From Limnephilus marmoratus (taxonomy: Eukaryota; Arthropoda; Insecta; Trichoptera; Limnephilidae), in the NCBI GenBank assembly GCA_917880885.1, contig OU862915.1, forward strand, positions 34,418,676 through 34,482,675: DNA of 64,000 bases. Reading direction: 5' to 3'. Shown here piece after piece: positions 17,959 through 59,708 of the stretch (within the stretch, counting starts at the first letter, position 1; every line of letters starts with the position of its first letter). A program made the position numbers and the translations under genes. Below the pieces are notes generated by a model. That model saw only the letters and a list, made by a program, of their open reading frames with translations, made no database searches and had not been told where the DNA came from.

Positions 17959-17964
17959 AAAAAT

Positions 17965-30880: not shown

Positions 30881-30884
30881 TAAA

Positions 30885-37570: not shown

Positions 37571-37945
37571 TCATTAACTCCACACAGGAGGCCCTGAGGA
37601 AAATAATTTCCCTCTAATTGTCATCTGGGATGCTGTGTGGAGGGTCTTTTCGAGAAGAGGAAGGAATGAATATTTGTCTTGAAGAGACTCATGTTGTAAG
37701 AAGGAGAAACACAGAGGCCGGCAAATCATTTCATAGCCGCGCTGTTGAACACAAGAACGAGTCGAAGAAGCGACTCGTTCTCGTGTGACAAATGTCAATC
37801 GTGTACAAATGTAGGGCACGCGTTTGGCGTGTTTCCCGACTATGCACCGGTGCCGAAAGGGTCAGTTATGCAAATCCTTCGAAGCCACTTCCATTATAAT
37901 ACCGGTAGAACAAGGATAGCATTCCCACCCGACGCCTGTGCTCTA
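37571..37945 (-). mobile_element. LINE A 3' end, interrupted by LINE B
   Basis: On the minus strand it carries the LINE A C-terminal coding trace and the 3' hairpin 'ctccacacag' / 'ctgtgtggag' (37578-37587 / 37633-37642). The inner stem's second half is lost ('cctctaattg'). The upstream part stops at 'gcctgtgctcta' (37945), and LINE A resumes at about 39247 after the LINE B insertion. The coding part has small insertions relative to 59.34-59.70 kb ('aaagggtcagttatg'). Confidence 0.85.
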
Positions 37946-39250
37946 ATTTTTTTTTTTTTTATTTATTTATTTATCTATAAAAGGTATGTTTACATAACAT
38001 TATTCGATGCCTGTCTCACTAGGGAATACCTGTGTTGAGACAGGCGTAGAGGTACATAAATGAGTATCATACATAAGAATATTTAATTACAACATGAGAA
38101 TATTTAAGGTAAGATACATACTGATTTATACAATTCAAACAGAAAGATGATTAAGATTGAGGGTTAATATCATAAAGAGAGCATTATATAGGTGAAGGAA
38201 GAGATGAATAAAGTAGTAAATCCTTTCGAGTCTATATAGGAAGTTATATTATACATATAGGATTTTACTATTTTAAGTTTTTTAATAAGGGTAAGGACAT
38301 ACGTGAGATGGTAATTCTGTCTATTTGTACTCTATTTTACAGATGTTAGCAGTAGTGTGGCGTCCAATACTTATAATCCATTTCTTTAAATCTTGTTTGT
38401 ATTTGGTCTTTGATTCGGTTTGTCTAATCGTGGCTGGAAGTGTATTGTATAGTTTGCAAGCTATGTATTTAAAGTGTTTTTGTCCAAAGGTGGTTTTAGA
38501 AAAGGGAGTTTGGAGAAGTTCTTTATTTTTGGCTCGTGTATTGTGTATCATTTGTGTTGGTTTGTATAGGATTTTGTTGTTTTTATGTAAATAAAGTAAG
38601 ATGGATTTTGCGTAGAGCTGTTTAATGTCCATAACGTTGAAAGTATTGAAGATCGTATCAGTGCTGGTAGTGAGAGGAAGTTTAAGAATTATTTTTATTA
38701 TTAGTTTTTGTGCTTTAATGATGGGTTCGAGGGCATTATAATAAGTGTTACCCCAAGCTAAAATTCCGTATTCGATGTGAGATTGGCACAGTGAGTAATA
38801 CACTGTTTTTAAAAGTTGTAGGTTAAGGAAATTGCGCGTTTGTTTGAAAAAGTAAATAGATTTGCGGATTTTGTTTGTAGTGTTAAGTATATGTTGCTTC
38901 CAATTTAGATGTGTATCAAAGGTTAATCCTAAATATTTGATAGTTGCTACTTGTTCTAGGCATGGGCAGTTGCAATTCCTGTTCTGAGATGAGTTATTAC
39001 ATTCGTGTATTTTTAATTTTGGGTGTAGGTTTGGTTTTGTGATATTGGTAAGACTAGACAGTAAGTATTTTGTTTTCTGTATATTAAGAGCTAATGTGTT
39101 CGAGTCAAGCCAATATTTAACCTTTTGAATTCCTACCTCCGCTTTAGAATATACGGTAGGCCAATCTTTTGCTTGAAATAGTAGTACAGTGTCGTCGGCG
39201 AAACTGACAATAGTGGCATCGATATCTAGGTTACACAACCCGTTAATGAT
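37946..39250 (-). mobile_element. LINE B inserted in LINE A
   Basis: Reads on the minus strand from about 39248 to a poly(A) plus (AAAT)n tail at 37946-37976. The 3' UTR holds a 10-bp hairpin 'gcctgtctca' / 'tgagacaggc' (38009-38018 / 38036-38045). The 5' end is truncated inside the RT palm. On both sides LINE A sequence is found ('gacgcctgtgctcta' left, 'gattgcaacccgtctg' right). No clear target duplication could be read. Confidence 0.85.
38321..39238 (-). CDS. LINE B reverse transcriptase, 5'-truncated open frame
   Basis: A 305-codon frame without stops. The catalytic motif 'VSFADDTVLLF' lies at residues 11-21. Then come 'WLDSNTLALNIQKTKYL' (palm/thumb), 'IKYLGLTFDTHLNWKQHI', 'IEYGILAWGN' and a C-terminal 'AKNKELLQTPFSKTTFGQKH', 'YNTLPATIRQTES'. 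These are in the usual order for Jockey-superfamily RTs. The frame continues open upstream of the first Met ('INGLC') to the truncation near 39248. Motifs A and B, fingers and endonuclease are missing, so it cannot act alone. Relatives with the same layout are at 50.16 and 56.5 kb. Open state despite truncation implies recent insertion. Confidence 0.85.
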   Translation of the reverse strand: MCNLDIDATIVSFADDTVLLFQAKDWPTVYSKAEVGIQKVKYWLDSNTLALNIQKTKYLLSSLTNITKPNLHPKLKIHECNNSSQNRNCNCPCLEQVATIKYLGLTFDTHLNWKQHILNTTNKIRKSIYFFKQTRNFLNLQLLKTVYYSLCQSHIEYGILAWGNTYYNALEPIIKAQKLIIKIILKLPLTTSTDTIFNTFNVMDIKQLYAKSILLYLHKNNKILYKPTQMIHNTRAKNKELLQTPFSKTTFGQKHFKYIACKLYNTLPATIRQTESKTKYKQDLKKWIISIGRHTTANICKIEYK

Positions 39251-39440
39251 TGCAACCCGTCTGTTAAGATGGGAGAATCTATCAAACGGACCGCCCGTTT
39301 TTGCCCAGAGTCGAGGGTATTTTTCAGGTATTTTGGAGCTTCAGACCAGAGGTGGCTGCCAAATTCAACCGTGGGGCACACATGTGATTTGTACAGGTTT
39401 AGCAGTTGTATACTATTAAAGTATCTGCGGGCCCTGTAAA
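39247..39440 (-). pseudogene. LINE A, part upstream of the LINE B insertion
   Basis: On the minus strand: 'LLNLYKSHVCPTVEFGSHLW', then 'KYLKN', then 'KRAVRLIDSPILTDGLQ'. It is colinear with 13.5-13.67 kb and continues logically into the 37.57-37.95 kb part. It keeps 13 bp that the 13.5-kb copy has lost. Confidence 0.75.
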
Positions 39441-40095
39441 GTAACGCCCAGTTTTTGAGAGGTTTTATACCCTTTTAACATTTTTATAAGCTTTTATGCC
39501 TTTTTTATGATAAAAAAATCATTTGGGTTCCTACATTGAATTTTTTTTTTAAAATTTTATACAATGTTAATTTAATTTTATGTAACTAATTCAATTTTGT
39601 TCATCTTTAAGCAAAAGCAAAATAATGCCAATCTTATTGTGACACGAGAATTCCATGAATGTAATGGTTGACTGTTGAATGTTCAATGACTCATAGAAAA
39701 ATAAACAATAAAAATGAAATAACTTGATTAAGATAAATAATTATCACATAATGTGCATCGATTGTGGTTCGGAAAGAATTTAGAACGATTTACGAGGCAG
39801 TTTGTTTATATGGATACGTATGAACACTTGAGATGTAGGTTAAGTTATGAATGCATCAGCTGTCCCGAGGACGCTTATCACATAATAGTCGAACATTTTA
39901 TTTATTGTGGCTTGGACTTTTTTGTTTCAAGTTACGATTAGTCGACGCCGATTAAAATGATATGGTGTTTTGGTGTTTTCTTCACATGTATGACCAGCAG
40001 AGCAGTACATTCGACCGGTCCATGGCCGAGTTTGGATCCCACTCAGGAGTTGTATGTTAAGTTCATCTGTGGCTAAATCCTCCATCTCGACACAA
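39441..40095. other. No firm feature
   Basis: AT-rich sequence. A 62-codon frame (39753-39941) has 'CISCPEDAYHIIVEHFIYC', vaguely like the Cys/His end of R1-type LINE proteins. It is too short to call. Confidence 0.35.
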
Positions 40096-40096
40096 G

Positions 40097-40175
40097 CAAC
40101 AATTTCTGCTTACTATTTTTCGTTTCATCGATTTTCAAATCACAACGGTCCTAAAGAAGTTTTACTTTAAATATC
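40097..40175 (-). repeat. Satellite-related fragment
   Basis: 'tttttcgtttcatcgatttt', 'caaatcacaacggtcctaaa', 'gaagttttact' equals the complement of the satellite's 'aaacttctttaggaccg', 'ttgtgatttgaaactgg' region. Only this end is kept. Confidence 0.75.
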
Positions 40176-40320
40176 GTAATGTGAGAAAGAGCTTGGACCC
40201 AAATTAAAAAGAGAAGGTTATCTTTATATTGATATTGTGCACTTAATATCGTATTTTATTATGCTAGTGCACTGCACTATAATTTGCAAAGGGACAATAC
40301 TTTGCCTAATAATATTTATT

Positions 40321-40768
40321 AGAGGCGGGTATGGGTACCGCCGCCCAGGGAATCATTTATTGGATAACCAACACCTCTGCCATAGGTCACCCTAAGTGGT
40401 TCGCTACGTTTGGTGACTTGGTAGGGGTGCCTGGGTTCATGGGGTGAGGTTTATCCGAGTCTTGGTAGCGTATGCGCCTGCTCACCAGCTGCATGGCAGG
40501 CCGGATCGCGAGAGAATGGTTGAGGGAGTTCCTTTAACTTCTCCAGCCGTACTCTCTGGGAATATTGCGTTACACCGCAGTGGGAGGCATGGATTCATAC
40601 GTCCGTCATTCCTGGACACACTAAACCCCGATTCCTACTCATCCCTAATAACCTTTTCATTTCCAAAACTTCCACTCCTTCCTTTCCCTAAAAAGACCCT
40701 CCATACAACATCTCTGATGGAATTCTTTTTTCCTCAGAGCCTTCTGTATGGAGCTAATGTAAAAAAGT
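40321..40768 (+). mobile_element. SINE-alpha, nearly complete copy
   Basis: The best full-length example in the window: start 'gaggcgggtatgggtaccgc', 'ggaatcatttattggataac', 'ggttcgctacgtttggtgac', 'ggccggatcgcgagagaatg', 'ccgcagtgggaggcatgg', tail 'aaagaccctccatacaaca' and 'gagctaatgtaaaaaa'. About 445 bp. No tRNA, 5S or 7SL promoter was recognised at the head. The tail hairpin has lost part of its inner stem. Confidence 0.9.
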
Positions 40769-41039
40769 AAGATATTTTCAAATATTGTCTGGTTATTCGT
40801 AACCAGGGAATGTTTGTCTTTCTTAAAATTTAAAAAAGAAATCCTTACCTATGTTTTTATTTTTAACTTTATGAGCCCTCAAATTATAACATTTAATTAT
40901 GAATATGTTGATATTTCGATCAACATATTAAAATCTTGCTATCTTTTTCGATCAACATACCATGTTGATCGAAAAATCCTCAAAGATGTAACGAAAAATC
41001 CTCAAACATGTAAAAAATAATTCAATGAATAAAGAAAAC

Positions 41040-41145
41040 TTTTATAAAATATATATTTAAATGAAGAAAATATTAGCGAAACTCATTCGAAAATCTGGAA
41101 ACAGAAAAATCAGAAAAAGATATTGGCAATATCGTATAATACGAG
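41040..41145 (-). mobile_element. SINE-beta copy (minus)
   Basis: The complement reads 'attgccaatatctttttctg', 'tttttctgtttccagatttt', 'cgaatgagtttcgc', 'ttcttcatttaaata'. It lies head to head with the adjoining gamma element. Confidence 0.7.
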
Positions 41146-41149
41146 TAGG

Positions 41150-41406
41150 TAAAGTATATTTTCGGCACGTTCCAGAGCGGAAGATACTCTCAGTATCGCC
41201 CTGGTATAACGTTGCTTGCAATGGCTTTAGCGTGTTTGGTGACCAGATCAGAATAGCCAGGTACTTTCCCACCTTCCTCTTTCCCATCTCCTTCCCATCC
41301 TCACTACCTTCAGCCTCACAGCATACTCCAATTGGAGATGCCATAGTCTCACTGGACCAGACGGGAGTAATTCGAGACTCTTGCGCGGTGCTCATGTAAA
41401 AAAAAG
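41150..41406 (+). mobile_element. Family gamma retroposon with A-tail
   Basis: 'cggcacgttccagagcgg', 'gaagatactctcagtatcgc', 'ggtgaccagatcagaa', 'gccatagtctcactgg', 'gcggtgctcatgtaaaaaaa'. The end strongly recalls the SINE-alpha and LINE A end ('gagctaatgtaaaaaaa'), and 'agtctc' / 'gagact' (41345, 41372) can form a terminal stem. The 112-codon frames on both strands are side effects and not conserved. Confidence 0.75.
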
Positions 41407-41589
41407 TGAAATCACTTCCATACTGCAGGTCACGATTCCTTTAAATTTTCTAGATTCTCCTTGTACCAATTCTCAGCATCTCCTTTCGTTCGTTGTACAA
41501 TAAAAATACATTTACTGTATATTTTAAATACTGTTTTAGCCTTCAAATCTTTAAACATTTTTGGAATTTCGGAAAGGTTCCCATTTCCA

Positions 41590-41860
41590 AATTTACTCCC
41601 TTCTATACCCTACCGTTACTATGTCACCTTTGCAATCCCTCCCTCTGCCATCCCTCGTCCTCCATCCCTTACCCTCACCCTCTCGTGTGTGTCCTTTCCC
41701 ATGCGCCCTCGTTACACTCTCGCGACCCTCACCCCTCTTGCGTTCCTTTCCACCTTCCCATCTTCCCTGCTTTCTCCCCTTCCGCGAACTCGTCCCTCGT
41801 TGATATTCCCAATCCCAAATTTCCCCTTCCCCTTCCCCTCCCTTCATCACTCCTTGAAGC
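41590..41860. repeat. Pyrimidine-rich low-complexity tract
   Basis: C/T-rich plus strand ('ccctccctctgccatccct' and similar) keeps several frames open, the longest 206 codons. The predicted peptides are Pro/Ser/Leu strings with no domain. I read this as composition, not a gene. Confidence 0.7.
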
Positions 41861-41919
41861 GAAACTAAATGAAAAACATACGTATCAAACAACTCGCACG
41901 CCACTAATTGTAATTTTTT

Positions 41920-42115
41920 ATACAAATTTCATAACGCCAGAGCTCACTATTATATATAGAAAAATTCACGGATGTGCGCATAACAACTCACCAAAGTTTC
42001 ATCGCTATCGGATGAATGCCAAAAGAAATAATTTCATAGCGCTAGAGCTCACCACAGAAACCATCGCGGGCATGCGCACGACAAATCTCCAAATTATCAT
42101 CGTAATCGTATGAAT
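41920..42115 (+). repeat. Imperfect ~75-bp tandem pair
   Basis: 'ttcataacgccagagctcac' (about 41927) and 'ttcatagcgctagagctcac' (about 42033), each followed by 'atgtgcgca' / 'atgcgcacg', then 'accaaagtttcatcg' / 'ccaaattatcatcg'. Confidence 0.6.
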
Positions 42116-42162
42116 GCTTTAGGTACATAAACATTCGTTTTTAAATAAAGATTATTTTTACA

Positions 42163-42450
42163 TTAGCCAGGGGGGGCAGGAGAAATTTCCACAGGAAGCC
42201 CTGAGGTAGGTGTCCAGGAGTGATGGACGTATGAATCCAATCCTCCCACTGCGTTGCAAGGCGATGTGTCGAGAGATTATGGCTGGAGAGAATAAAAGAT
42301 CACCCTCAACCAGTCTCTCTCGATTATACCCACCACGCAGCAGGTGGGCAGACGCATCGGTCACCAAAACCTGGATAAACCTCACCCCATGAACCCGGTT
42401 ACCCCTGCTAAGTCAACAAACGTAGCGAACCCCTTGGGGTGACAGCATTT
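42163..42450 (-). mobile_element. SINE-alpha copy (minus)
   Basis: Complement order: 'ggttcgctacgtttg', 'ggggtgaggtttatcc', 'actggttgagggtga', 'tctctcgacacatcgc', 'cgcagtgggagg', ending near 'ggaaatttctcctg'. The 3' tail is rearranged ('caggaagccctgaggtag'). Confidence 0.8.
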
Positions 42451-42504
42451 ATATGATAAGCATTAATATAATTATAATTTAACTCTTCATTCATTATTAA
42501 AATA

Positions 42505-42945
42505 ATTTTCCTCAGGGCCTATGCTATCTTTCGCGATGCTATTTGGAGAGACTTTTTAGGTGAAGAAAGAGAGGAAGTTCTGGGAAAGAAAGGGATACCA
42601 GGGGTGGGTAGGAATCTGGGAGAGTGTGTCCAGAAGTGAGGGACGTATGAATCCATCCCTCCCACTGCGGTGCAAGGTGATGTTCCGAGAGAGTACGGCT
42701 GGAGAATCAACCAACCAATCCCTCAACCATTCTCTCCCGATCCGGCCTGTTATGCAGCTGGTGGGTAGACGCACCCGCCGCCAAGAACCAGATAAACCCC
42801 ACCACATGAGCATAGAATATTATAGGGCACCCCTGCTAAGTTACCAAACGTAGCGAACCACTTGGGGTGACCTATGGCAGAAGTCTTAATGGCAAGATTA
42901 TCCAAATGGGTTCCCAGGGCAGCAGTACCATACCCGCCACCCAAA
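42505..42945 (-). mobile_element. SINE-alpha copy (minus), second
   Basis: Near full length: 5' end at 'gggtggcgggtatgg' (about 42940) to the tail 'ggccctgaggaaaattattt' at about 42520. It has a 12-bp A/T-rich insertion, 'aatattctatgct', at about 42807-42820 within the 'gcccgggttcatggg' block. Confidence 0.85.
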
Positions 42946-43039
42946 TTGAATCTTTCGGAAAACTACGGTTTCTTTTTAAATAATAGGTCGCAAAATATAC
43001 CTACTGATTATCGTATTGTAGTAATAAAGTCCTTATATG

Positions 43040-43175
43040 GTAATCACTGTCGTGATGAGGAATCAAAATGGGGAGAAGAGGACGCATATAAAGGTCCCAG
43101 CAATACAGATCTAGTCACTAAAAATAACTAATCGCACTTCAAGCAACGTTTTAATTCGGAATGATAAGTCTCAAT
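43040..43175 (-). repeat. Family gamma fragment (minus)
   Basis: Contains 'cagatctagtcac', 'cttcaagcaacgttttaatt', 'cggaatgataagtct', as in 0.98-1.04 kb. Confidence 0.5.
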
Positions 43176-43600
43176 AAAATTCCATACCAATTTAATAAAT
43201 ATTACGTGCGCATCGCCGCCGGGTTGATTAGAGTCCGCAACATATTGGCCAGTCGTATTGGCACTTTCATATTCTATTAATAACTTTACAGTCGTCCAAC
43301 CAAAAACTTGAACAAATAAGCGGCAACGTCGCAAGACGTTGGTTTGTAGTCAACATGAAAATGAATATATAATTGGACGCTACATTGTGGACCAAATTGA
43401 AGAAAATATACGCAGGATGCCTCACTGCATTGAATATGAAAGGAGTTCGGATTGGTGGAACTTTGAAGGGCGTTTTTTTCGTTTTGTATATTTTTATTAT
43501 CATAATTTTTTTTTAAAATATAAATACCTAGCTACAATCAAACACTTAAAAGCTAGTATATACTTTAGTTAAAACTATGTAAAATTAAGTCCTTCAGATA
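43176..43600. other. No recognised feature
   Basis: Frames of 68-78 codons on both strands overlap and show no motif. Confidence 0.35.
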
Positions 43601-43646
43601 GACGCAGTAATGTCGATCTGATGAAAGGACGCAACAATGATAGCGG

Positions 43647-43690
<44 letters not shown>
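43601..43690 (-). repeat. (TA)n microsatellite with its flanking repeat, inverted
   Basis: 'gacgcaacaatgatagcggg', 'atgta' followed by TA repeats to about 43688. This is the complement of the 32.52-32.59 kb arrangement. Confidence 0.85.
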
Positions 43691-43691
<1 letters not shown>

Positions 43692-43899
43692 ATACATTTG
43701 GGGAAGGTTTTATAACTCGCAATACACAACTACATGCTACGCATTTCGAGCTCGGATCCCTTGCATAGAATTCTGCGAAATTCTAAGTTTGGTAACCGAA
43801 TATATACATAAAAGAGTGGGTAATATTAATAGATACTAGTAGAATAAGAAATTATCTTCGGTTTGTTCTGGAGTGCCGAAAACTCCAAGCTTTTTGATT

Positions 43900-44310
43900 T
43901 GTTTGGTTGACAATTTTATTTAAGAGATTGCCATCTCTATTATGTGTTTGGTTAATGGTCCTCCTTTTAAAGAGCGACCACTGCCTCCTATTGTTGAACT
44001 GTTTTTCTAAATTTTCCCCCAAGGTTCAACTTTTGGTAAACCTTTTACTCTCCCGTGATTTTTCAACTGCTTCATGTAAATTATTTATACTTGTAAGAGC
44101 AATTATTTCATAAATTTTCCTCGAATTTTCCATGTAATTCCTCAATACCCCTTAAACTTGCCCGTGATTTCCCAAATGTTTGATGTAGCTAACTGCTACC
44201 TCGGAGAGTAGTTAATCCCTAAAATTTTCTCGAACATTCCATGTAATTCTTCAATACTCTCTTATTTTACTATCCCGTGATTTTTCAAATGTTTGATGCA
44301 CCTATTATTT
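43900..44310 (+). repeat. Degenerate ~111-bp tandem repeat, about 3 copies
   Basis: 'cccgtgattttt(c)aa...' occurs at about 44052, 44161 and 44273. Between them recur 'ttccatgtaattc(c/t)tcaata' and 'ttaaa(t/c)ttgcccgtg'-like words. Old and diverged. Confidence 0.6.
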
Positions 44311-45174
44311 GTCTAGCTTATAATAAATCTGTTAACTTTCAATTGTTCAGTTCAAAATTTATCTCTTCATGTTCAAATTAAAGATTGTGTTTAAAACTTT
44401 TTCTATAATTGCGCAACTTCATGGCTTTGTCCCACTCTAAAAGTTAATACCTAAATACAATACTAATACCTGTCGACTACCTATTAAAGACCCAGGTACA
44501 TCTACCTTTAAAAGCATTTGACACAGTGTCCTACTGACCGAGTTGTTTTATAAACAGTTTTAATTATGTAAACATTCCCGCTGTCCTCGTGACCTAGATA
44601 CCAAACGTGAGATATTTGTTTATTATCTCACGAACGCGAGCTTATATGGTTCTAAATTTTTTTCTTTTGAATTTAATAGTAAATTCCTTTTCGCAAATGT
44701 CTAATCTGTTCCCCGATAAATATAGTCATAACGCATATATATATACATATATATTTTGTCTCAATAAATAAATATACTGATATATACAATTATATTATAG
44801 TTGAAATAAATTCTAATATCATAACTCATTTTTTGATCATTTTATATTAGCTGAAGTTATAATTAATAGTACATATACTAAAATAAATACAAAACTTTGA
44901 CTTGGAAATTTGTCAAACACATAAGTATTTTAAATAGTTACTGATAAATTCAAAGGTAGGTATTCGAGATCGATACCTTTACTTTTAATATAAGTGTGTT
45001 TCTTTTTGATTAAACTTTCTTGGAATAATATATATATATAATATGTATTTTATATATAATATTTTAATATAGGTACATATCACATATTAAGCAAGTAATA
45101 TTTTATTATTTTTAATTGTAAAACTAACGTTTTTAAGACAAGATTTTTTTTATGCATAGCACAAAGGGTAACAA
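44311..45174. other. No recognised feature
   Basis: Very AT-rich with short TA runs at 44735-44755 and 45028-45060. Confidence 0.45.
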
Positions 45175-45240
45175 TTATTATAAGCAATAATTATCAGCCT
45201 GAAACACTCATCCACATTGAAAAATCTTCCGAGAAAAGAT

Positions 45241-45314
45241 ACATGACGCCAACGGGACTTGAACCCGTGTCCTCTCGATTGCCGGTCGATTGCTCTTGAC
45301 CACTGAGCTATGGT
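45241..45314 (-). pseudogene. tRNA-like sequence, left arm (minus)
   Basis: Same sequence as the right-arm copy on the other strand, except that the acceptor 5' strand is cut short: the inverted repeat ends at 'ctatgg', so bases 1-4 of the acceptor ('gccg') are replaced by spacer sequence. It therefore cannot form the full acceptor stem. Confidence 0.8.
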
Positions 45315-45385
45315 CTATATAATAAGCAGTAATTGTTGAATGAAACACTAGCATATATTGAATCATTTGGCGGGTACGAGATAAG

Positions 45386-45459
45386 CCGCCATAGCTCAGT
45401 GGTCAAGAGCAATCGACCGGCAATCGAGAGGACACGGGTTCAAGTCCCGTTGGCGTCAT
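45386..45459 (+). pseudogene. tRNA-like gene, right arm (plus)
   Basis: It folds as a cloverleaf: acceptor 'gccgcca' / 'tggcgtc' (one mismatch), D-stem 'gctc' / 'gagc', anticodon stem 'atcga' / 'tcgag' (one mismatch), T-arm 'acggg' / 'cccgt' with loop 'ttcaagt'. The anticodon loop is 'ccggcaa', giving anticodon GGC but with C at position 33 in place of the invariant U. The body ('agctcagtgg', 'atcgac', 'tcgagagg') most resembles tRNA-Cys. 'tatctttt' lies just downstream and could end Pol III transcription. Probably a tRNA-derived pseudogene; a functional tRNA cannot be excluded by eye. Confidence 0.7.
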
Positions 45460-45527
45460 GTATCTTTTCTCGGAAGATTTTTCAATGTGGATGAGTGTTT
45501 CAGGCTGATAATTATTGCTTATAATAA

Positions 45528-48873: not shown

Positions 48874-48954
48874 TCTTAGAGGGTTGGAGCTGGCATTGCA
48901 GTATCACTGCTTCACACGCGAGCACACACCACATTACATTCCATTACACATTTG

Positions 48955-50700: not shown

Positions 50701-51404
50701 AATAGTTTTATGGTTGAATGATTTCAGGTTTGTTTCGCATTGATTTAAAGGTAATTTTCAAAATTAGAACTGATGAAAACTTAGAATTAGGGTTATAATA
50801 AGTTATAAGTAAAGTCAGGCGAATTTTTAAATGTACCTATAGGTACGCTTTTTACTATCCAGTGATTTTTCACAGGTCTGTGCAAGTTTCTAGTGAAATA
50901 CAACCCTTCCAAATGAGAAGTATTTTGGTTTTGTTTAATGGTATTCTGTAAAAAAATAAAATAACCATAAACTTTTTTTTTATTTCATCTTCGGTAGTAT
51001 ATTTAAAAGTCTTTAAACTTTTCTTACTAATTAATCAAAAAAATTATTATGTAGACGTCATGATGTTTGGGCAGATTCAACTAAAAATTCCGAGTGACTA
51101 ACTTTTTGAATCTGGGAAAGCCTTCTGGTGTTTGACCTCTAGTACAGGGATTCCCAAACTTGGAAACTTTCATTACCTTTTCAGATCCTCCTCACTTTTA
51201 TTATGACACCTTAGTCAGTTAGCGAGTTATCTTCTCTTGTTATTATATCATCTCTAATTAATAAAGTGTTAAGCGACGCATTTCTGAAATTTACGAAATA
51301 ATTTGTTATTTTATTTGTCTTTTATTACCTAGGAATGTTATAGATGATACCGTTGACACGATTTTATTTTATTTGGTTTACGCACAGGAAGGCTTTTATA
51401 TAGA
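50701..51404. other. No recognised feature
   Basis: AT-rich; a 'ggattcccaaacttgg' palindrome-like word at about 51149 may be a decayed terminal repeat. Confidence 0.35.
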
Positions 51405-51725
51405 TTACTAGCAGACCCGGGGACACTGTTGCTGTGACTAACGAAACACAGTTCCATTACCCAACCTTTATAACCAACGCCATCTGATAATTTGCATAGA
51501 TATCAAATTTACACCACCCGCTTGCTAGCTGCCCGCTGCCCGCTGCTTGCATTGAATCTTTTAATTTCTCGGCTTTTCTCTACTATAATATCCATGTACC
51601 ATACATATAAACCTTCCTCTTGAATCACTCTATCTATTGGTGAAAACCGCATGAAAATCCGTTGCGTAGTTTAACAGTTCTAAGCGCACAGACAGTGGGA
51701 GCGACTTAATTTTATCCTATGTAAC
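51405..51725 (-). repeat. Family H copy (minus), with CTAG end
   Basis: Starts at 'ctagcagacccgggg' (51407) and contains 'tatctattggtgaaaacc', 'gcatgaaaatccgttg'. It is the inverted, longer version of 498-725, with a GC-rich 'gctgcccgctgcccgctgc' patch in the middle. Confidence 0.65.
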
Positions 51726-51837
51726 TACGTAAAGATGAACACAATAATATACCTAATGAGCTACTGAAAATTTTAGAAAATAATTTTCAAAGCATGAAGT
51801 AATATAAAACTGATAAATTAAATAAGATAAAATCAGG

Positions 51838-52062
51838 GTGTGCAATTCACATGCGGTAGAATTAAAACCTTCAGAAAACTGAAGTAAACAAGAGTGGGGA
51901 GGATACGAAGCACCCCGCAAAGAGGAGACCGATAATTCTATCTCTTTCTCTCGCAGTATAAATCCAATAGATGAATTTGTCTCTTGTTAGTGAGGCAATT
52001 TTTCGTTTCATCGGGATTCAAATCACAACGGTGCTAAAGAAGTTTTGACTTAAAAAAATATT
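51838..52062 (-). repeat. Dispersed relative of the satellite monomer
   Basis: Shares with the complement of the satellite: 'gtgcaattcacatgcg', 'gatacgaagcac', 'gcaaagaggagaccgat', 'cgtttcatc', 'caaatcacaacgg' and 'ctaaagaag'. It has one 'cgcaaagaggagaccgat' block where each monomer has two. Confidence 0.8.
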
Positions 52063-52379
52063 AGTAAAACGAGTAACAGTAGGATTTAACAAAGGATATA
52101 ATTTGTGGGATTCAACAAAGTGCTGGCAAGGTAAAGTTTAATTTTATAAAAGGAGTCCGTAAATATATCAATACGAACCCCCAATTTGTTGCCCAGTTCG
52201 TTGCAGAAAAATGTTACATTTCGTGTAGCGTTCCTCAGTAAATATTAAATAACTTTAATCGGTTGGATACTGCTTTAACTGGTCTTTTTTAAACTTATAT
52301 ATGGCTGTTATCTTTATAATGAGTTATGAAAATGAAATTAAATGTTGGTTAAGAAAATGAAAATAACGTTGGTAGTTCT
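52063..52379. other. No recognised feature
   Basis: AT-rich, no gene. Confidence 0.4.
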
Positions 52380-52460
52380 CGGATTAGATTAGCTCAGTGG
52401 AACATGTACGCACTCGCATACTGCCTGCTAACAATGTATGCCCGGACATTGGAGGTCTAG
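52380..52460 (+). pseudogene. tRNA-like remnant
   Basis: 'gattagctcagtgg' resembles a tRNA D-arm, and 'ggaggtctagagtc' a decayed T-arm about 50 bp later. Weak. Confidence 0.35.
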
Positions 52461-52610
52461 AGTCATTTTAAATAAAAAGTAGCTTCTTTATAAATAAAAA
52501 ATTAGAGTCCTGACGAGTACGGTGAAGGAGGAAACCATCTGTTTGCTTAGAACGCCGTGGGAAAGTGGTGGGCAACCTCCAAAAGCTCAGTGGTCGGAGC
52601 ATTTCCCCGT

Positions 52611-53410
52611 AAAGCAGCTCTGGCCAACCCGAATTGCACCCGGGCTGCATTGACGACCCAAAATTTTCTCAAGGGCCGCACATACAGACATTATGCAAAA
52701 ATAATAACATTTTTTTATTCCAACGAATTTCATACAGTATCTACTCTATGTAAATGTCTTAATTGTGTAACATGTACTTAAGTAAATAAATATACTTACC
52801 TCTTTTTTGTAAGTATTATAAATAATTTGAATGCAGAAGTAATCTGAAAGAACAATCAGTTTAATTGTGTAAATAATATTACTACAGCCAGATGTGCAAA
52901 GAAAACACACATGAAACCAACAAAAAATGTATTTTTATAGTAATTATAATTTTTAACAATGAAAATTATTAATTGTGACACATAAATCAAACAATATTAA
53001 ATTTTTTATTTGAAATAAAACCAATTATCATGACCGCCTCTTTCAGTGCGAGATTTGAGTTTCTTTTCGCTTACTTAATTTTTCTAAATCTATTTCAATA
53101 TTTGAAGTTGCACTTTTTAACTGCTTTTCCAGATTTACATCTGTTATTGAGGCCCTATTTTTATTTTTATTATTAATTTTGGAAAAAAAAGCTTCACAAA
53201 CGTAGGTAAATAGTCAGTATATTTTGTTTCATGACGTCTTTTAACATTGAATTCTTTAAAAGCTGTTACTGTTTCTCTACAAATTAAACAGGTTAATTTG
53301 AAGTTATACGTTATAAAAAAATAATCATCTTCCCAGTAGTCACTGAATTTTCTTTTTTCATCAACAAGTTTCCTTTTCTTCGAAATCATGTTTAACGGAT
53401 AAAACATAAA
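52611..53410 (-). mobile_element. Second hAT copy, internally deleted
   Basis: At 52611 'cagctctggccaaccc', followed by 'gcacccgggctgc' and 'agggccgcacata'. The complement matches the right end of the 16.1-19.3 kb hAT ('gtgcggccc', 'ggcccgggtgc', 'ggttggcca'). The transposase N-terminus lies at 53144-53407 pointing towards this end, the correct polarity. Only about 530 bp separate them, so the catalytic part and C-terminus are deleted. The other terminus was not found. Confidence 0.75.
53144..53407 (-). pseudogene. hAT transposase N-terminal fragment (BED-like zinc finger)
   Basis: The 87-codon frame reads 'KKRKLVDEKRKFSDYWEDDY', then 'TCLICRETVTAFKEFNVKRR', then 'HETKYTDY' at residues 10-66. 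This matches the start of SCAND3/ZBED/GTF2IRD2-like hAT transposases: a C-x2-C ... H-x(3-5)-H/Y zinc-binding unit that binds element DNA. The last zinc-ligand region reads H-ETKY where H-xTKH is usual, so a ligand may be lost. The frame runs into unrelated sequence after residue 70. It complements the C-terminal fragment at 18.93-19.11 kb in showing which branch the family belongs to. Confidence 0.7.
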
Positions 53411-53495
53411 TGTAGGTACTAATTAATAGATAATATATCACCAAAATAAGTTCACCTGTTTAGCTGAGAATACGCAACTTGTACGATCGTATTAA

Positions 53496-53572
53496 GAGGT
53501 AATAACCAGAAAAAACCGGAAATATGTCATTTTTAAATCAAATTTTAGCCGTGTTGACTCTTTTCCTGTTCC
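53496..53572 (+). repeat. TTAA element, left-end fragment
   Basis: TTAA at 53492-53495 is followed by 'gaggtaataaccag', then 'ggaaatatgtcattttta' and 'tgttgactcttttcc', colinear with 9237-9308. It is cut at about 53572, where LINE A-like 'gttgaactcaagaacgagtc' follows. Confidence 0.75.
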
Positions 53573-53612
53573 TGTTGAACTCAAGAACGAGTCGTAGGAG
53601 CAACCCATAATA
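53573..53612 (-). repeat. LINE A scrap
   Basis: 'gttgaactcaagaacgagtc', 'gtaggagcaaccc' equals 'gttgaacacaagaacgagtc', 'gaagaaacgaccc' of 59.51-59.54 kb. Confidence 0.6.
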
Positions 53613-53744
53613 CTAACATAGTTTTTCAACAAAGCAATTCTAATTACCAAAAAAATATTAGTATTGCACGTGATCGGATAACAAAACGGCCACTCTCACA
53701 TTTCATATCCTGGGTGCGCAGAAATAATTATGTATTTAAGGCGC

Positions 53745-54115
53745 CGCATTCCCCCTCAAAAATAAGAAGATGGAGAGATGTGTAATTACGAATGTTGGAG
53801 AGAAATTGAAACGAAAATTGTTTAAAATAGAACAAACATCTCTTGGGGGCTGTATAAAACAGCCTTTAAAGAAAAACTGTGAATTTTTCATTCGTATAAC
53901 TTGTAAAATAACTGAAACAAACGAGTTTATAATAATTTTCGGAGCATACTTTGCGATTTTTTCCTATTGAGGGAATTTCATATAATTTGCCTTTCGGCAC
54001 GGCGTGGGAAAAGTATCGATATTATTTTCAAAAATAACATATATATTTTTAAGAACTTTGAAACTTCAAATGTTTAAGGGAGATATGTAAGAAATAGGTA
54101 GCATTTCGGGTAGCA
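53745..54115 (-). repeat. Dispersed repeat epsilon, uninterrupted copy
   Basis: It matches both halves of the hAT target at 16.0 and 19.3-19.6 kb, joined without the hAT element. At the corresponding point (complement 'gaaaataatatcgatac') there is no duplication of 'gtctagat' and no hAT sequence. A 66-codon frame (53770-53970) is not maintained in the other copy. Confidence 0.8.
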
Positions 54116-54696
54116 GCGGCTTGAAGGACGTTTTGTAAACGACATAAAATTATTTAATTATCAAAACATTTTTATTTGGGCACTAATGACAAAAAGTTTT
54201 TCATGAACAATCACCTCTAAAGTTTCACGGTGTAAGCTTGGAACACTGTATATACTGTAAATTGGTCAATGTACTCTGCAATATAAGACGTTCATAATTA
54301 AATGCAAGAAATACATTTTTTATTTATCCATTCGGTAGGTAAAATACATATTTCAGTTTTAAGATTTTTTCAAAATTCGGTAAAAATAGCTTTATTTTTT
54401 GAAGTGTTTACTCCTTATAAAATAGTTGACTTTTATTATAAAATGATAACCTTGCAATAATATTTATCGGCAGATACTTTAACAGGAAAACTAACGTCGA
54501 AAAGCGTTCGAATCATAAAAACGGTTTTCCTGGAACTAAATCAAACTTGGGTTTGCTGGAAAGATTTATAGAACCGGTTGGTAAATATGAAGGGCCATAT
54601 TATGGTAAGTCAGAAAATTATGGGATGGCCCAAAATAATTGTAGGGAATTTTTTTAAAATATTTTTTTTGGAGAAGTAACATTTTATCTTTGCTAT
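54116..54696. other. No recognised feature
   Basis: AT-rich, no gene. Confidence 0.4.
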
Positions 54697-55338
54697 CATC
54701 ATGTCTGAAAATGTTTGAAATTTAGGTTTATATTGAATGAAATGAGTGATTGCTAATGAAACTGATTACATACAAAATCATCATGTCTGAAAATGTTTGA
54801 AATTTAGGTTTATATTGAATGAAATGAGTGATTGCTAATGAAACTGATTACATACAAAATCATCATGTCTGAAAATGTTTGAAATTTAGGTTTATATTGA
54901 ATGAAATGAGTGATTGCTAATGAAACTGATTAATACAAAATCATCATGTCTGAAAATGTTTGAAATTTAGGTTTATATTGAATGAAATGAGTGATTGCTA
55001 ATGAAACTGATTACATACAAAATCATCATGTCTGAAAATGTTTGAAATTTAAGTTTATATTGAATGAAATGAGTGATTGCTAATGAAACTGATTACATAC
55101 AAAATCATCATGTCTGAAAATGTTTGAAATTTAGGTTTATATTGAATGAAATGAGTGATTGCTAATGAAACTGATTACATACAAAATCATCATGTCTGAA
55201 AATGTTTGAAATTTAGGTTTATATTGAATGAAATGAGTGATTGCTAATGAAACTGATTACATACAAAATCATCATGTCTGAAAATGTTTGAAATTTAGGT
55301 TTATATTGAATGCAATGAGTGATTGCTAATGAAACTGA
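54697..55338 (+). repeat. 82-bp tandem repeat, 7.8 copies
   Basis: Units start with 'catcatgtctgaaaatg' at 54697, 54779, 54861, 54942, 55024, 55106, 55188 and 55270. One unit is 81 bp ('gattaatac' for 'gattacatac'). Otherwise only one or two single-base differences are seen. Near identity points to recent expansion. No long frame. Confidence 0.97.
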
Positions 55339-55669
55339 CAACAGATTTCACCGCATGCACCACGTTGGCGATAGCGCGAGAAAATGGGACCTTTTAATAC
55401 TCCTACGGCGACGGCACGAAAACGGCACAAAAAAGCATAAAATTTACGTTTTTTATCGCAATAATGCTGTATCTGTTTCTTACACACTAAATAATGGTGA
55501 GAGAAACGATTTACGTATGTCTGCTTCCTGCAAAGGAGTAATGCAATAATTATCATACATCTCCCTCACTCGCATTAATGAAAACAGACGACCCCGTGTC
55601 GTTTAGTATTAAAAGCGGTCTATTGTTTAATTTTTTTTTGAATACGTAATGAGCATAATATTTATGAGG
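55339..55669. other. No recognised feature
   Basis: Two overlapping 76-codon frames on opposite strands; no motif. Confidence 0.35.
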
Positions 55670-55815
55670 TAATGGGGAGGGAAAGGAAACTGGGAAGAGA
55701 AAAGTAAGGAAGTTCCTGGCTATTCAGATCTGATCACCAAACACGGCTAAAGCCATTAGCCATAGTAACGTTTCATTTTCAGAACGGTGGTCTTTCAACT
55801 GTGCCAAAACGACCG
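55670..55815 (-). repeat. Family gamma fragment (minus)
   Basis: Contains 'tggctattcagatctgatca', 'ccaaacacggctaaagccat', then 'cagaacggtggtctt', as in 34.82-34.88 kb. Confidence 0.65.
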
Positions 55816-55984
55816 TATGTGCCATTCTCACCACAAGACACTCTAACGAGGAGGACCAAGAAATACCATTACTGTTTTTAAATTCACCGTTTTATTTTAT
55901 ATGCCCAATACTTTACATAGACGCTAAAATAAATAAAAAATTTCAACGGGTAGTACAAATTATTTTTAATTTGTTAATTTTGAA

Positions 55985-56075
55985 ACGAAACAAATTGATT
56001 GGAATTTGAATCTGCAACCTTCGGATTCATTTTCGAGAACCTTACCCCTCGATCACGGAGTCCGGAAAAATTTTA
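55985..56075 (-). pseudogene. tRNA-related SINE head (minus)
   Basis: Minus strand: 'ccgtgatcgaggggtaaggt', 'tctcg', then 'gaaggttgcagattcaaatt', 'cc'. Same family as 37.43-37.51 kb. Confidence 0.5.
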
Positions 56076-56484
56076 TAAATGGAAAATGTTACGTGGATAG
56101 GCAAAAGGATTATTTTTATTGTTTTATCACAATTAGTGATGTGCTATGCCTAACTCACTTTAAACTCCTGTAATGCGGGCAGGTGCAGTTTAAAACATAA
56201 GCACTTTATAACAAAAATAACAACACAATATTACGTTTAAAATAACAGACAAATGAAATAATGGAACATATCGATATTTCGATGGATATTGATTTGAAAT
56301 AATAAGACCTAGAATTGTGAATAAAACAAAGAATAATATTTAAAAGCAAGTATATACGAATAGGCATACAATAGGCACACAATGTTACTTTTGATTACAA
56401 CAAATAAAACAATCAAATTTAATTATAACAATCAAAATAGAAAGACAATCAACATCGAATAATTGATAATACTCACAAAGGTTT
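56076..56484. other. No recognised feature
   Basis: AT-rich; may include the 3' UTR of the LINE that follows, but the LINE B hairpin was not found. Confidence 0.35.
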
Positions 56485-57003
56485 TTAAAAACTTTGTGAT
56501 TTAACTACTGATCCAAGACTTATTTTTCGCGTAATTCGTATTCTGTCTAATGGCAAACAGAAGGGCTTTGTGTAACTTAATTGCACAGCATCTAAAATTA
56601 ATTTTACGAAATGTTGTTTTAGCGAAAGGGATAAGTAAGAGGTTATGTCATTGGATTCAGTATAATGAGCAGTTCGGACAATATCAAATAGAATTCTGTG
56701 TTTGAAGAGGTATGCTATTATGCTTTTGGCGTAAAGTTGCCAAATACCCAAAATATAGATTCTCCTAAAGATTTCTTTCGAACAGCTGATGATCGGTAGT
56801 TTTAGAATAATCTTTATGATTAGTTTCTGAGCTTTAAAGGTTGGATCAACGGTGGCAGCGTTTGCTCCTCCCCAGGCTATAATACCGCACTTGATTAAAG
56901 ATAGACGTAATTCCAAGTAAATTAGTTCGAGCTGAATCAAGTTAAGAAAGTTGCGATATTTTCTAAATAATTGTATGGATTTTCTAAGTTTGTTTGTTTA
57001 CAA
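56485..57003 (-). pseudogene. LINE B-type RT C-terminal region, truncated
   Basis: On the minus strand, upstream of the annotated 151-codon frame, reading continues 'NKLRKSIQLFRKYRNFLNL'. The frame then gives 'LSLIKCGIIAWGGANAATV', 'KAQKLIIKIILKLP', 'LGIWQLYAKSIIAYLFKHRI'. Each block has its counterpart in LINE B at 38.32-39.24 kb ('TTNKIRKSIYFFKQTRNFLN', 'IEYGILAWGN', 'KAQKLIIKIILKLP', 'KQLYAKSILLYLHKNNKI'), with a small deletion after 'FLNL'. No catalytic motif is left. Confidence 0.8.
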
Positions 57004-57094
57004 ATAGTTTAATTGCAGCTTATTATCTTCGTAGACATATTAGGAACAGAAGATGTAGATATCACGTACATCCGATCGTCGCCCAAAGAGCATT

Positions 57095-57286
57095 TCAAAG
57101 GAAATTCACTCGTTGGTCGACCGACGGTTCGCATGCGCACGCGCTCGACCGACGATTCTCATACGCACTGCGTAGCGATATACGCATTCGTATGGTCTGT
57201 CCTGCACTGAACCATTGATGAATTTTCATACAAATGATAAACGCGACCGACGTACGCACCGACCGTCGGTCGAGCACTGTAACTGG
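57095..57286. mobile_element. GC-rich fold-back with CGACCGACG motifs
   Basis: 'gaccgacg' type words occur on the plus strand at about 57117, 57147 and 57244, and inverted at about 57262 ('accgtcggtcgag'). With 'gcgcacgcgctcg' and 'catgcgcac' they make a GC-rich island in AT-rich DNA. It ends 'gcactgtaactggcc', followed by 'tta'. Probably a MITE or DNA-transposon end inserted at the SINE-alpha 'gcctt(g/a)caccgcag' site. The left terminus is not found. Confidence 0.6.
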
Positions 57287-57480
57287 CCTTACACCACAGG
57301 GGGAAGAATGGATTTATGCGTCCACCACTTCTGGATACACTGACTCTCAGATATCTAATACAACTAATACCTTTTTCCTTCCCAGAACTTCCTCTCTAGC
57401 ATTTCCCTAAAAAGACTTTCCACAGAGCATTCCCAAAGTTGACATAATCCCTTCGAATATTTTTTTCTTCAGGGTCTCCT
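57287..57480 (+). mobile_element. SINE-alpha, 3' half
   Basis: Begins at 'ttacaccacagggggaaga' and continues to a diverged tail ('aaagactttccacagagc', 'ttcttcagggtctcct'). The 5' half is replaced by the GC-rich fold-back. Confidence 0.75.
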
Positions 57481-57485
57481 TTGGT

Positions 57486-57812
57486 TTGTAGACTTAGCAA
57501 GAGTTCCTGGGTTCATGGGGTAAGATATTTCTAGGTATTGGCGGCGGATGCCTACTGCGCGACGGGCCGGATCGGGAGAGACTGGTGGTTTCGACCCATT
57601 GCCTTGCACCACAGTGGAAGGAATGGACTCATACTTTCTTAACTCCTAGACACATTAACCTCCAGAATACTATTCACCACTCATACCTTTTTCCTTCCCA
57701 GAATTTCCTCTCTTTTCTTTCCCTAAAACACCCTCTACCACCATCCGCAAAGAATGATATGGGCTCTGAGAGAAATTGTTTACTCCAGGACCTCCTGTGT
57801 GGAGCTTATGTA
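57486..57812 (+). mobile_element. SINE-alpha, second adjacent copy
   Basis: From 'gtttgtagacttagcaagag', 'ggttcatggggtaagat' to 'ctgtgtggagcttatgtaaa'. It lacks the 5' ~110 bp. The two copies lie head to tail, with the second starting inside the family. Confidence 0.8.
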
Positions 57813-58430
57813 AACAAAAGTGGTGTCATAGAATATTGCCGCCGAAATATGTAATAAAAACACAACGTTAGCGATGTACCAACCATTTGTGTGCTTACTT
57901 TAAAATTTAAAGTAAGAACAAAAACTGCTTTTTCCAAAATACCTTTATCCACCCGTTACTCGCACCTACCTACGAATCTACCGATCCCGTAGTAATTTAT
58001 TTGCTTTTCATTCCGTTAAAAAGCTGGCCGCCCGCGCCCCTTTGCCGAACCACGAACATACGTTGATCCTTATTCCCTCTCCTTGCAAAGAAGCTCATAA
58101 TAACGTACGAGCATACCCCGATCCTGCAATATGATTTAATATTCGATGGAACAAGTTATTCGGGGAAGGAATAATAATGTATTCGGGATTGAAGCAACGG
58201 TATTTTTAAACTGAACTTATATTAATATTTTTTCGGTAAAGTAACTCAATTATTTTTTTAATAATATAGAGTCTGACGACAACACTATTTATTGTGTTTA
58301 ATTTAAATTAAGACACCTCTCTTCTCTCTAAAATAACTCATTATGTACTTAAGATATTAGTTAAGAATTGTAGTTAATAGCTCCACACTTCAACTAGTGC
58401 TCAAGTATCCTTTTCCTATGTAAGGAAAGA
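57813..58430. other. No recognised feature
   Basis: AT-rich, no gene. Confidence 0.4.
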
Positions 58431-58433
58431 GAA

Positions 58434-58935
58434 CAGAACAAGTTACAAATTCTCCAAAACAGGGCAATGAGAATAATTATTCAACGAAATAGATTTTCAA
58501 AAATAATTAAAATGTTAAAGGAACTATATTGGTTAACTATTAAACAGATGCTGACCTTGAATACGATGGTATTTATCCATAAAATGTTAAACAACATGTT
58601 ACCAAAATACTTCTCAAATAAATTTTTTTACAACAAGGACATTCACAGATATAACACAAGGACGTGCAAGGAAATTAGGCTACAAAAAAAGGACAAAGCG
58701 AATACGCAGAACAGTTTACTGTTCAAGGGAAAACACACTACCAGAAACTTTAAAGTCCACACCAATTGGAAAGTCCAAGATGTATTGTAGGAGTTATATA
58801 AAACTGGAAAAAATATAGTGAATATGAAATATTATAATTAATTAGCTGCAATATGAAATTTTATAAATAATTAGAAATTTGTAAACTTAAATGTACAAAT
58901 TACTAAAATAAATTATTATTATTATTATTATAGAT
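58434..58935 (+). mobile_element. LINE 3' end with (ATT)n tail (plus)
   Basis: A coding trace at 58440-58790 is followed by about 120 bp of 3' UTR and a tail of ATT triplets at about 58912-58933. The microsatellite-like tail differs from the A-tails of LINE A and B, so it is another lineage. Confidence 0.75.
58440..58790 (+). CDS. LINE RT C-terminal domain, truncated
   Basis: Starting upstream of the first Met, the frame reads 'LQILQNRAMRIIIQRNRFSK', then 'LKELYWLTIKQMLTLNTMVF', then 'IHKMLNNMLPKYF', then 'HRYNTR', then 'TQNSLLFKG', then stop. The order LQNRAMR-I, LxWLxIKQRLxxNTL, IYKxxNxLLPxYL, H-YxTR, -SLFYKG is typical of the C-terminal domain of CR1/Jockey-like reverse transcriptases, after the catalytic core. 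The core itself is absent, so the fragment is inert. The frame is intact over its length. Confidence 0.75.
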   Translation, partial: KLQILQNRAMRIIIQRNRFSKIIKMLKELYWLTIKQMLTLNTMVFIHKMLNNMLPKYFSNKFFYNKDIHRYNTRTCKEIRLQKKDKANTQNSLLFKGKHTTRNFKVHTNWKVQDVL

Positions 58936-59335
58936 ATGTCGACAGCACAGTGAATACTATTTTATCGAATTAATTTCTTAGAAAAATGATCAATCCAACC
59001 GGAATCCAATACGTAAATAAAGCATTTGAAAGTGATTGGCAACAATTTATTCATAAAATAAACTAGTAATCTAAGCTAAAATAATATCAGATAGTTAGTT
59101 TTTTCATAGATAAAAATATATGAAAAATCATTACACTTACTTTCTGAAGATGCCTCGCACAAAAAAAACTTCATTTCTCCAAAAAATTAATAAAGTCACA
59201 GCATGCCATTGAATATTTTGTTCAAAAATAGTAAAATACAAGAATAATACAATAAAATAAAGTGATTAAAACTGTAAGGAGCAGTAATCACATTATTTAT
59301 TTATACTCAAATGAATAATATCTTTTTTTTTGCGT
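58936..59335. other. No recognised feature
   Basis: AT-rich, no gene. Confidence 0.4.
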
Positions 59336-59708
59336 TAACTCCACGCAGGAGGCCCTGAGGAAAATAATTTCCCTCAGGGCCTATGTCATCTGGGATGCTG
59401 TGTGGAGGGTCTTTTTGAGGAGAGGAAGGAATGAACATTGGTCTTGAAGAGACCCATGTTGTAGGAAGGAGGAAACACAGAGGCCGGCAAATCATTCCAC
59501 AGCCGAGCTGTTGAACACAAGAACGAGTCGAAGAAACGACCCGTTCTCATGTGGCAAATGTCAACCATGTACAAATGTTGGGCACGCGTTTGGCGTGTTT
59601 CCCGACTATGTACCGGTGCCGGTGATGCTAGTTCCTCGGAGCATCTTCCATTGTAATACCGGTAGAACAAGGATAGCATTCCCACCCGACGCCTGTGCTC
59701 TAAAGATT
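59336..59708 (-). mobile_element. LINE A 3' end, best copy
   Basis: Minus strand: coding region (59707 to 59386) and 3' UTR with a two-tier hairpin. The outer stem is 'ctccacgcag' / 'ctgtgtggag' (59339-59348 / 59398-59407). The inner stem is 'ggccctgagg' / 'cctcagggcc' (59351-59360 / 59372-59381). A short A-run follows at 59324-59334. This is the same tail as in SINE-alpha. The upstream break at 'gcctgtgctctaaagatt' is within a few bases of the LINE B insertion point in the other LINE A copy. Confidence 0.85.
59386..59707 (-). CDS. LINE A RT C-terminal domain
   Basis: The frame (99 codons from its first Met) reads 'MLSLFYRYYNGRCSEELASP', then 'TRQTRAQHLYMVDICHMRTG', then 'RFFDSFLCSTARLWNDLPAS', then 'VFPPSYNMGLFKTNVHSFLS', and stops just before the 3' hairpin. 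The order LSLFYRYxxGxCSxELA, TRxxRxxHxYxV, RTxxFxxSFLxxTARLWNxLPAxVFPxxYNxxxFKxxV is a familiar C-terminal signature of insect non-LTR elements of the Jockey superfamily. The catalytic core lies upstream and is missing here; part of the preceding region survives at 39.25-39.44 kb. The piece shows no stop or frameshift. Confidence 0.8.

What the first reader, a model, noticed from the sequence alone, without database searches (positions are those of the whole stretch)
37571..59708. SINE-alpha and LINE A share a 3' tail with a two-tier hairpin
Seen: the last ~110 bp of SINE-alpha (for example 1940-2072, 40.68-40.77 kb) and of LINE A (59.34-59.45 kb, minus) carry the same blocks in the same order: 'aaagaccctccacacag', a 'ggccctgagg' / 'cctcagggcc' stem, 'ctgtgtggag', then A-rich. 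LINE A codes for an RT C-terminus; SINE-alpha does not. Known: many SINEs carry a 3' tail copied from the LINE whose RT mobilises them. Inference: LINE A drives SINE-alpha.
Basis: partly seen in the sequence, partly recalled or inferred. Interest (0 to 1): 0.75.

Follow-up and report, generated by a model that had tools for sequence, protein, structure and literature searches.

The report
Gutted LINE copies, not SINEs
The abundant short repeat read as a "SINE" is a LINE retrotransposon with its middle cut out: it keeps the LINE's front and the folded tail that its copying enzyme probably recognises, and tens of thousands of copies fill this genome, a large example of a known but uncommon kind of genomic parasite.

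Summary
The shared 3' tail is real: 84% over 109 bp, E about 1e-27 in the window, folding far better than shuffles (z -7.0, -7.6). The inference is half right. LINE A is a genuine LINE: L009 holds a 3.6-kb copy with one open frame of 981 codons, endonuclease plus reverse transcriptase. But "SINE-alpha" is not a SINE: its head is LINE A's own 5'UTR. It reads LINE A 1-218, 386-~525 and ~3470-3575 in order, without the ORF. It is a short internally deleted element (SIDE), like Persaeus/Zenon of Lepidoptera (PMC6740152). A younger 334-nt form arose from the 468-nt form. Genome counts at up to 3 mismatches: short-form junction 29,977; long-form junction 14,861; LINE A ORF end 23,926; LINE A-only 5'UTR segment 854. 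No tRNA, 5S or 7SL head was found. The 29 tail pairs are kept between LINE and SIDE consensuses, but covariation among 37 copies is not significant. Mobilisation by LINE A's lineage is inferred, not shown. New member of a known kind.

The parts
59325..59708 (-). LINE A copy, 5'-truncated (LINE A 3183-3575): end of ORF, 3' tail, A-tail
   Evidence: 96% to L009 LINE A; frame SLEHRRRVGM...KRPSTQHPR*
59339..59407 (-). 3' tail hairpin of LINE A
   Evidence: fold z -6.99
37564..37946 (-). LINE A, 3' part (3188-3575) of a copy split by another LINE
39244..39462 (-). LINE A, 5' part (2973-3190) of the same split copy; between them a 1.3-kb LINE fragment with poly-A and an apparent 4-bp ATTA duplication
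13367..13674 (-). LINE A fragment (3009-3376, with gap)
1674..2072 (+).
   Evidence: tail fold z -6.25
17309..17963 (+). SIDE long form, carrying a ~200-bp insertion (17381-17582)
33352..33745 (+). SIDE long form, cut in the tail
40323..40766 (+). SIDE long form with head and tail; outer stem carries one compensated pair change
42499..42944 (-). SIDE long form, tail incomplete
42210..42443 (-). SIDE long form, partial
57286..57818 (+). two damaged SIDE long-form copies end to end
63204..63555 (+). SIDE long form with internal deletion
24502..24777 (.). SIDE long form with head inverted relative to body; borders the 277-bp satellite array
30881..31341 (.). same inverted arrangement on the other side of the array
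11945..12009 (+). isolated tail piece (LINE A 3510-3574)

Best explanation
SINE-alpha is a short internally deleted element (SIDE) derived from the LINE A lineage. A LINE A ancestor lost about 2.9 kb, essentially its ORF, between a pyrimidine/A-rich stretch just before the start codon and a matching stretch just before the stop codon. Another 167 nt inside the 5'UTR is absent too (lost in the SIDE, or gained later by LINE A). What remains is most of the 5'UTR, which in LINEs carries the internal promoter (established knowledge), and the last codons plus 3'UTR with its hairpin and A-tail. The RNA is presumably made from the retained 5'UTR by the LINE's own kind of promoter, bound through the tail hairpin by LINE A-type protein in trans, and copied by target-primed reverse transcription. 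The long form (468 nt) was copied first; a further deletion made a 334-nt form that was copied more recently. Shown here: shared ends, order of blocks, common junctions, copy numbers, relative ages, fold. Inferred: promoter, trans-recognition, mechanism of deletion.
For: Blocks of the long-form consensus match L009 LINE A in order: 197/218, 101/116 + 21/23, then 25/25 + 58/60 in the tail, leaving out blocks of 9 nt or less at the joint and ends. 41 of 92 chains in 276,613 bp of sample join the 5'UTR (ending at LINE A 511-548) directly to the tail (starting at 3465-3508); the only chain holding both 5'UTR and ORF is L009 itself. 13 chains share the 218|386 join and 14 the 157|~465 join. The 5' ends agree: ATTTGGTAGG begins 7 of 9 full-length LINE A copies, L009 included, and 10 of 14 SIDEs with both ends have CAAT just before TTGG. 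The SIDE tail keeps sequence of the last LINE codons. A 12-nt repeat TTCCTTCCTCTC lies at both ORF breakpoints in L009 (0 of 19,314 random 45-nt segment pairs of LINE A share a 12-mer). Junction 24-mers: 29,977 short-form (control 0) and 14,861 long-form (control 2) against 854 of a 24-mer in the LINE A-only 5'UTR segment (control 0). Median K2P to consensus: long 0.134 (35 of 36 chains), short 0.035 (19 of 19), LINE against L009 0.077 (14 of 19).
Against: No mobilisation was observed. Today's young LINE A tail lacks 3 nt of the small hairpin's loop that SIDE tails have (CCA against CCCAAA), so the youngest LINE A may not be the exact partner; older LINE A copies with a CAAA-bearing loop exist. 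Covariation is not significant. No excess of target-site duplications was found. The long form is on average older than the sampled LINE copies, and no old LINE copy with its 5'UTR was seen. Pyrimidine-rich tracts match each other more easily than the 12-nt control suggests.
Confidence: 0.9

Rival explanations
1. SINE-alpha is a true SINE (Pol III head) that picked up the tail of LINE A.
For: Shared tail and A-rich end; short, non-coding, very many copies.
Against: Head is collinear with LINE A's 5'UTR. Rfam gives no tRNA, 5S, 7SL or snRNA match on SIDE copies of the window at E up to 1, none on the copy at 40323 at E up to 10, none in the L009 5'UTR at E up to 10.
Confidence: 0.03
2. The short copies are not an element but LINE A copies that each lost their middle after insertion.
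For: The sequence is LINE A-derived.
Against: Dispersed copies with different flanks share the same junctions; 29,977 short-form junctions against 854 LINE A-only 5'UTR segments; short-form copies share changes of their own.
Confidence: 0.01
3. Reverse direction: LINE A acquired its 5'UTR from the short element by template switching, so the short element is the older thing.
For: The long form is older on average than the LINE copies sampled (median K2P 0.134 against 0.077); the 167-nt segment was seen only in LINE A.
Against: The SIDE tail carries sequence of the last LINE codons, so the element came from one with the ORF. LINE copies up to K2P 0.163 exist, but in the sample none except L009 keeps a 5'UTR, so the old LINE 5' end was not seen.
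Confidence: 0.06

Closest known systems
Persaeus SIDE and its partner CR1 LINE Zenon (Lepidoptera; PMC6740152: abstract, introduction, part 1 of the results, the Persaeus/Zenon structure section and discussion read)
   Same: 5'UTR plus 3' end of a single-ORF LINE, ORF deleted, no Pol III promoter found, up to about 10^5 copies, short direct repeats at the breakpoints, partner LINE in the same genome
   Different: Here the 5' block stops about 44 nt before the ATG (Persaeus reaches into the ORF start), the repeat is TTCCTTCCTCTC instead of AGGCC, there is only a short pyrimidine-rich joint and no clear unrelated central region, and there are two nested deletion forms. Whether LINE A is a Zenon could not be tested.
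R2 and R2/R1 SIDEs of Drosophila (PMC3414825, abstract read)
   Same: 5' and 3' ends of an autonomous LINE joined by internal deletion; movement in trans proposed
   Different: R2 SIDEs have a 5' ribozyme and an rDNA site and are called rare; no Rfam ribozyme matched the LINE A 5'UTR and the copies here are dispersed
Stringent-type LINEs with 3' stem-loop recognition (UnaL2, ZfL2; PMC4176376, abstract and introduction read)
   Same: A stem-loop at the 3' end shared between LINE and non-autonomous partner
   Different: The fold here is larger (three helices, 29 pairs) and its binding is untested; the non-autonomous partner is a SIDE, not a SINE

Membership tests
SINE | Head derived from tRNA, 5S, 7SL or another Pol III gene | tested here: not met
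   Head is LINE A 5'UTR; no Rfam match
SINE | 3' tail shared with a LINE | tested here: met
SIDE | Both ends collinear with one autonomous LINE, interior with the ORF deleted | tested here: met
SIDE | Amplified as its own unit (same junction in many dispersed copies) | tested here: met
   41 of 92 chains; 29,977 and 14,861 junctions genome-wide; differing flanks of 14 copies
SIDE | Mobilised in trans by the parent LINE | not testable with these tools
   inferred from the shared 3' end and overlapping ages
Persaeus/Zenon | Parent LINE belongs to CR1/Zenon | tested here: inconclusive
   EN + RT in one ORF of 981 codons. 23 of the 120 listed relatives carry an organism name, 46-52% identical, 22 lepidopteran and one isopod. 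No labelled Zenon was available.
Persaeus/Zenon | 5' block includes the start of the ORF; AGGCC repeats at the break | tested here: not met
   5' block ends near LINE A 525, ATG at 569; the repeat is TTCCTTCCTCTC
Stringent-type LINE | Stem-loop at the 3' end shared with a partner | tested here: met
Stringent-type LINE | Structure under selection (covariation) | tested here: inconclusive
   6 pairs with a change on both sides against 3.0 +- 1.5 in shuffles (31 of 500 as high); slid controls gave 6-11; covariation score 0.082 against 0.080 (146 of 500)

The most novel reading that the evidence does not exclude
A LINE has been pared down in two successive steps by the success of its own deletion products: 3.6 kb, then 468 nt, then 334 nt. 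The smallest form, about 157 nt of 5'UTR core, a joint of some 60-70 nt and the 105-nt folded tail, would be close to the minimal set of signals for transcription and trans-mobilisation. At equal mismatch tolerance SIDE junctions outnumber the LINE A-only 5'UTR segment by about 50 to 1.
Probability: 0.4. Interest if true: 0.5.

Novelty: new member of a known kind. Interest (0 to 1): 0.38.

Why it matters
SIDEs from LINEs are described as rare (PMC6740152, introduction). This genome offers about 45,000 junction-bearing copies in two nested forms beside young LINE A copies with open frames, a natural deletion series: the parts that survive in each successful form point to the promoter core and to the 3' signal that the LINE protein needs. 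It is also a warning for annotation: a shared 3' tail alone does not make a SINE; the head must be compared with the LINE's 5'UTR.

Tried and rejected
Pol III head: rejected. The near-identical 5' ends of the two window LINE A copies looked like a fixed short element; rejected, since LINE A continues upstream in other copies and the 37.6-kb copy is split by an insertion. Target-site duplications: no excess (mean longest shared string 3.93 against 3.99 in shuffled pairs; 15 pairs, 14 SIDEs and L009, whose 3' flank was empty and counted 0; one pair shared 8 bases); six LINE copies with both flanks were only looked at by eye. Covariation: not significant. The tail pattern in viral contigs: 0. Tails of other LINE families: one LINE about 29% identical, in L026, also ends in a long hairpin, anecdotal only. 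The clade of LINE A and the host are not settled. A search for other LINE families with P0026 and one for a lepidopteran marker family did not complete, nor was a genome count of the tail 24-mer (not repeated).

Limits of the sample. L001-L028 lie on contig 1 around listed CTGTGTGGAG matches, mostly chosen for them, so they favour young copies. Window plus six 10-kb places at round coordinates (124,000 bp) is less biased: SIDE 4.5% and LINE A 3.2% of bases, no short form among them, and the window is denser in SIDEs. CTGTGTGGAG counts (71,139 + 71,084; reversed-pattern control 1,036 + 1,056) take in both arms of the stem, so tails with at least one intact arm number roughly 70,000 to 140,000. 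L002 and L006 were left out of the 276,613-bp sample as overlapping L010 and L009, and L008 was trimmed. Of 42 tails listed, 37 were aligned; five cut or extrapolated ones were dropped. 14 LINE 5' ends were picked for long open frames out of 150 listed rows; 8 of 14 reach LINE A position 1-3, seven 98.8-99.5% and one 95.2% identical to L009; my notebook entry says 9, and 8 is right. The 218|386 pattern would also count any old LINE that lacks the 167-nt segment; no sampled chain shows one. Only 7,992 candidates were scored.
Full report
Observation. The tail folds into an outer 10-bp stem, a small CAUC/GAUG hairpin and an inner stem of about 15 bp; z is -6.99 for the window LINE A copy and -7.61 for L009. 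In seven further copies (four long-form, two short-form, one LINE) z runs from -3.62 to -7.63, the small hairpin being absent from the best fold of three. The LINE A reading frame runs into the tail and stops inside it.

What LINE A is. The window lies in a 1.63-Gb genome of 67 contigs. One tail hit led to L009, where LINE A is full length: positions 4396-7970 and a long A-run, with a 981-codon open frame carrying endonuclease and reverse transcriptase domains. Of 14 further 5' ends, picked for long open frames, eight are complete; seven are 98.8-99.5% identical to L009 over about 750 bp and one 95.2%. LINE A is therefore young and perhaps still active (inference). As a family it is strongly 5'-truncated: 23,926 copies of a 24-mer from the ORF end against 854 of a 24-mer in the LINE A-only 5'UTR segment, both with up to 3 mismatches, controls 0.

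What SINE-alpha is. Aligning six window copies to L009 showed that the head is LINE A's 5'UTR. Chaining LINE A matches over 276,613 bp gave 92 chains: 36 long-form (17 with tail), 19 short-form (18 with tail), 19 LINE (9 with tail) and 18 fragments. Long form: LINE A 1-218, 386-~525, ~3470-3575, consensus 468 nt. Short form: 1-157, ~460-~520, ~3470-3575, consensus 334 nt. 41 chains join 5'UTR to tail directly, and none but L009 holds both 5'UTR and ORF. The short form shares the ORF-deletion joint and the tail changes (CCCCAAAG, GAGCT) of the long form, so it arose from it. One of six further places (L049) shows another internal deletion. Sequence of the last LINE codons remains in the SIDE tail, which argues that the short element came from the LINE and not the reverse. 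TTCCTTCCTCTC occurs at both ORF breakpoints in L009, as short repeats are reported for Zenon. SIDE copies are complete at the 5' end far more often than LINE copies: 20 of 36 long, 9 of 19 short, 1 of 19 LINE chains.

Numbers and ages. Junction 24-mers with up to 3 mismatches: short form 29,977 (control 0), long form 14,861 (control 2); being older, the long form is probably undercounted. In 124,000 bp of less biased sequence SIDE covers 4.5% and LINE A 3.2%. Median K2P to consensus: long 0.134 (35 copies), short 0.035 (19), LINE A against L009 0.077 (14, range 0.019-0.163). LINE A copies thus span both SIDE waves, which fits, but does not prove, that its lineage moved them.

Structure as a signal. 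Reading the consensuses side by side, all 29 pairs are kept between LINE A and both SIDE forms; inside the fold the differences are a 3-nt length change in the small hairpin's loop and, in the full-length long-form consensus, one A-U/G-U change. Among 37 copies 89.2% of cells are paired (shuffled 88.9, 86 of 500 as high), and 6 pairs show a change on both sides (shuffled 3.0 +- 1.5; 31 of 500 reach it; slid controls 6-11); the covariation score is 0.082 against 0.080. Copies that decay neutrally from few sources cannot show much more. The copy at 40323-40766 does carry one compensated change in the outer stem.

Known kinds. The name SIDE was given for R2-derived elements (PMC3414825, abstract); Persaeus is a CR1-derived SIDE with up to 115,283 copies in one butterfly (PMC6740152, parts read). 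The present element works like Persaeus. It fails two of its particular features (reach into the ORF start, AGGCC repeat) and its LINE's clade is untested, so I file it as a new SIDE family and not as Persaeus. In a search of the held library for Persaeus, SIDE and Zenon (at least two of three words), only PMC6740152 of the 8 papers listed out of 642 holds the word Persaeus; the rest were not seen. Recognition of 3' stem-loops by LINE proteins is reported for zebrafish and eel L2 LINEs (PMC4176376, abstract and introduction); its extension to LINE A is inference.

Noticed in passing
window 24898-31009: Satellite array of 277-bp units, mostly 90-100% alike, bounded on both sides by SIDE pieces with the same inverted-head arrangement; the array may have grown inside or beside one such SIDE.
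   Followed up: partly
L026:4307-4784: Part of the tail hairpin (LINE A 3509-3575) repeats every 137 bp, four times in a row (matches 137 bp apart at C1:908212-908760).
   Followed up: no
window 37950-39244: A 1.3-kb LINE fragment (RT-like frame 38321-39340) inserted in a LINE A copy, with poly-A and an apparent 4-bp ATTA duplication.
   Followed up: partly
window 45175-45527: Perfect 139-bp inverted repeat whose arms each hold most of the same tRNA gene-like sequence, facing each other.
   Followed up: no
G000:C1:1847465-1878382: Nine short-form SIDE junctions about 3-5 kb apart in the same orientation, perhaps a large repeat that carries the SIDE.
   Followed up: no
L026:1876-2150: Another LINE (about 29% amino-acid identity to LINE A) also ends in a long hairpin.
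   Followed up: no
window 17381-17582: A ~200-bp insertion with inverted-repeat arms inside a SIDE copy; looks like a small inverted-repeat transposon.
   Followed up: no
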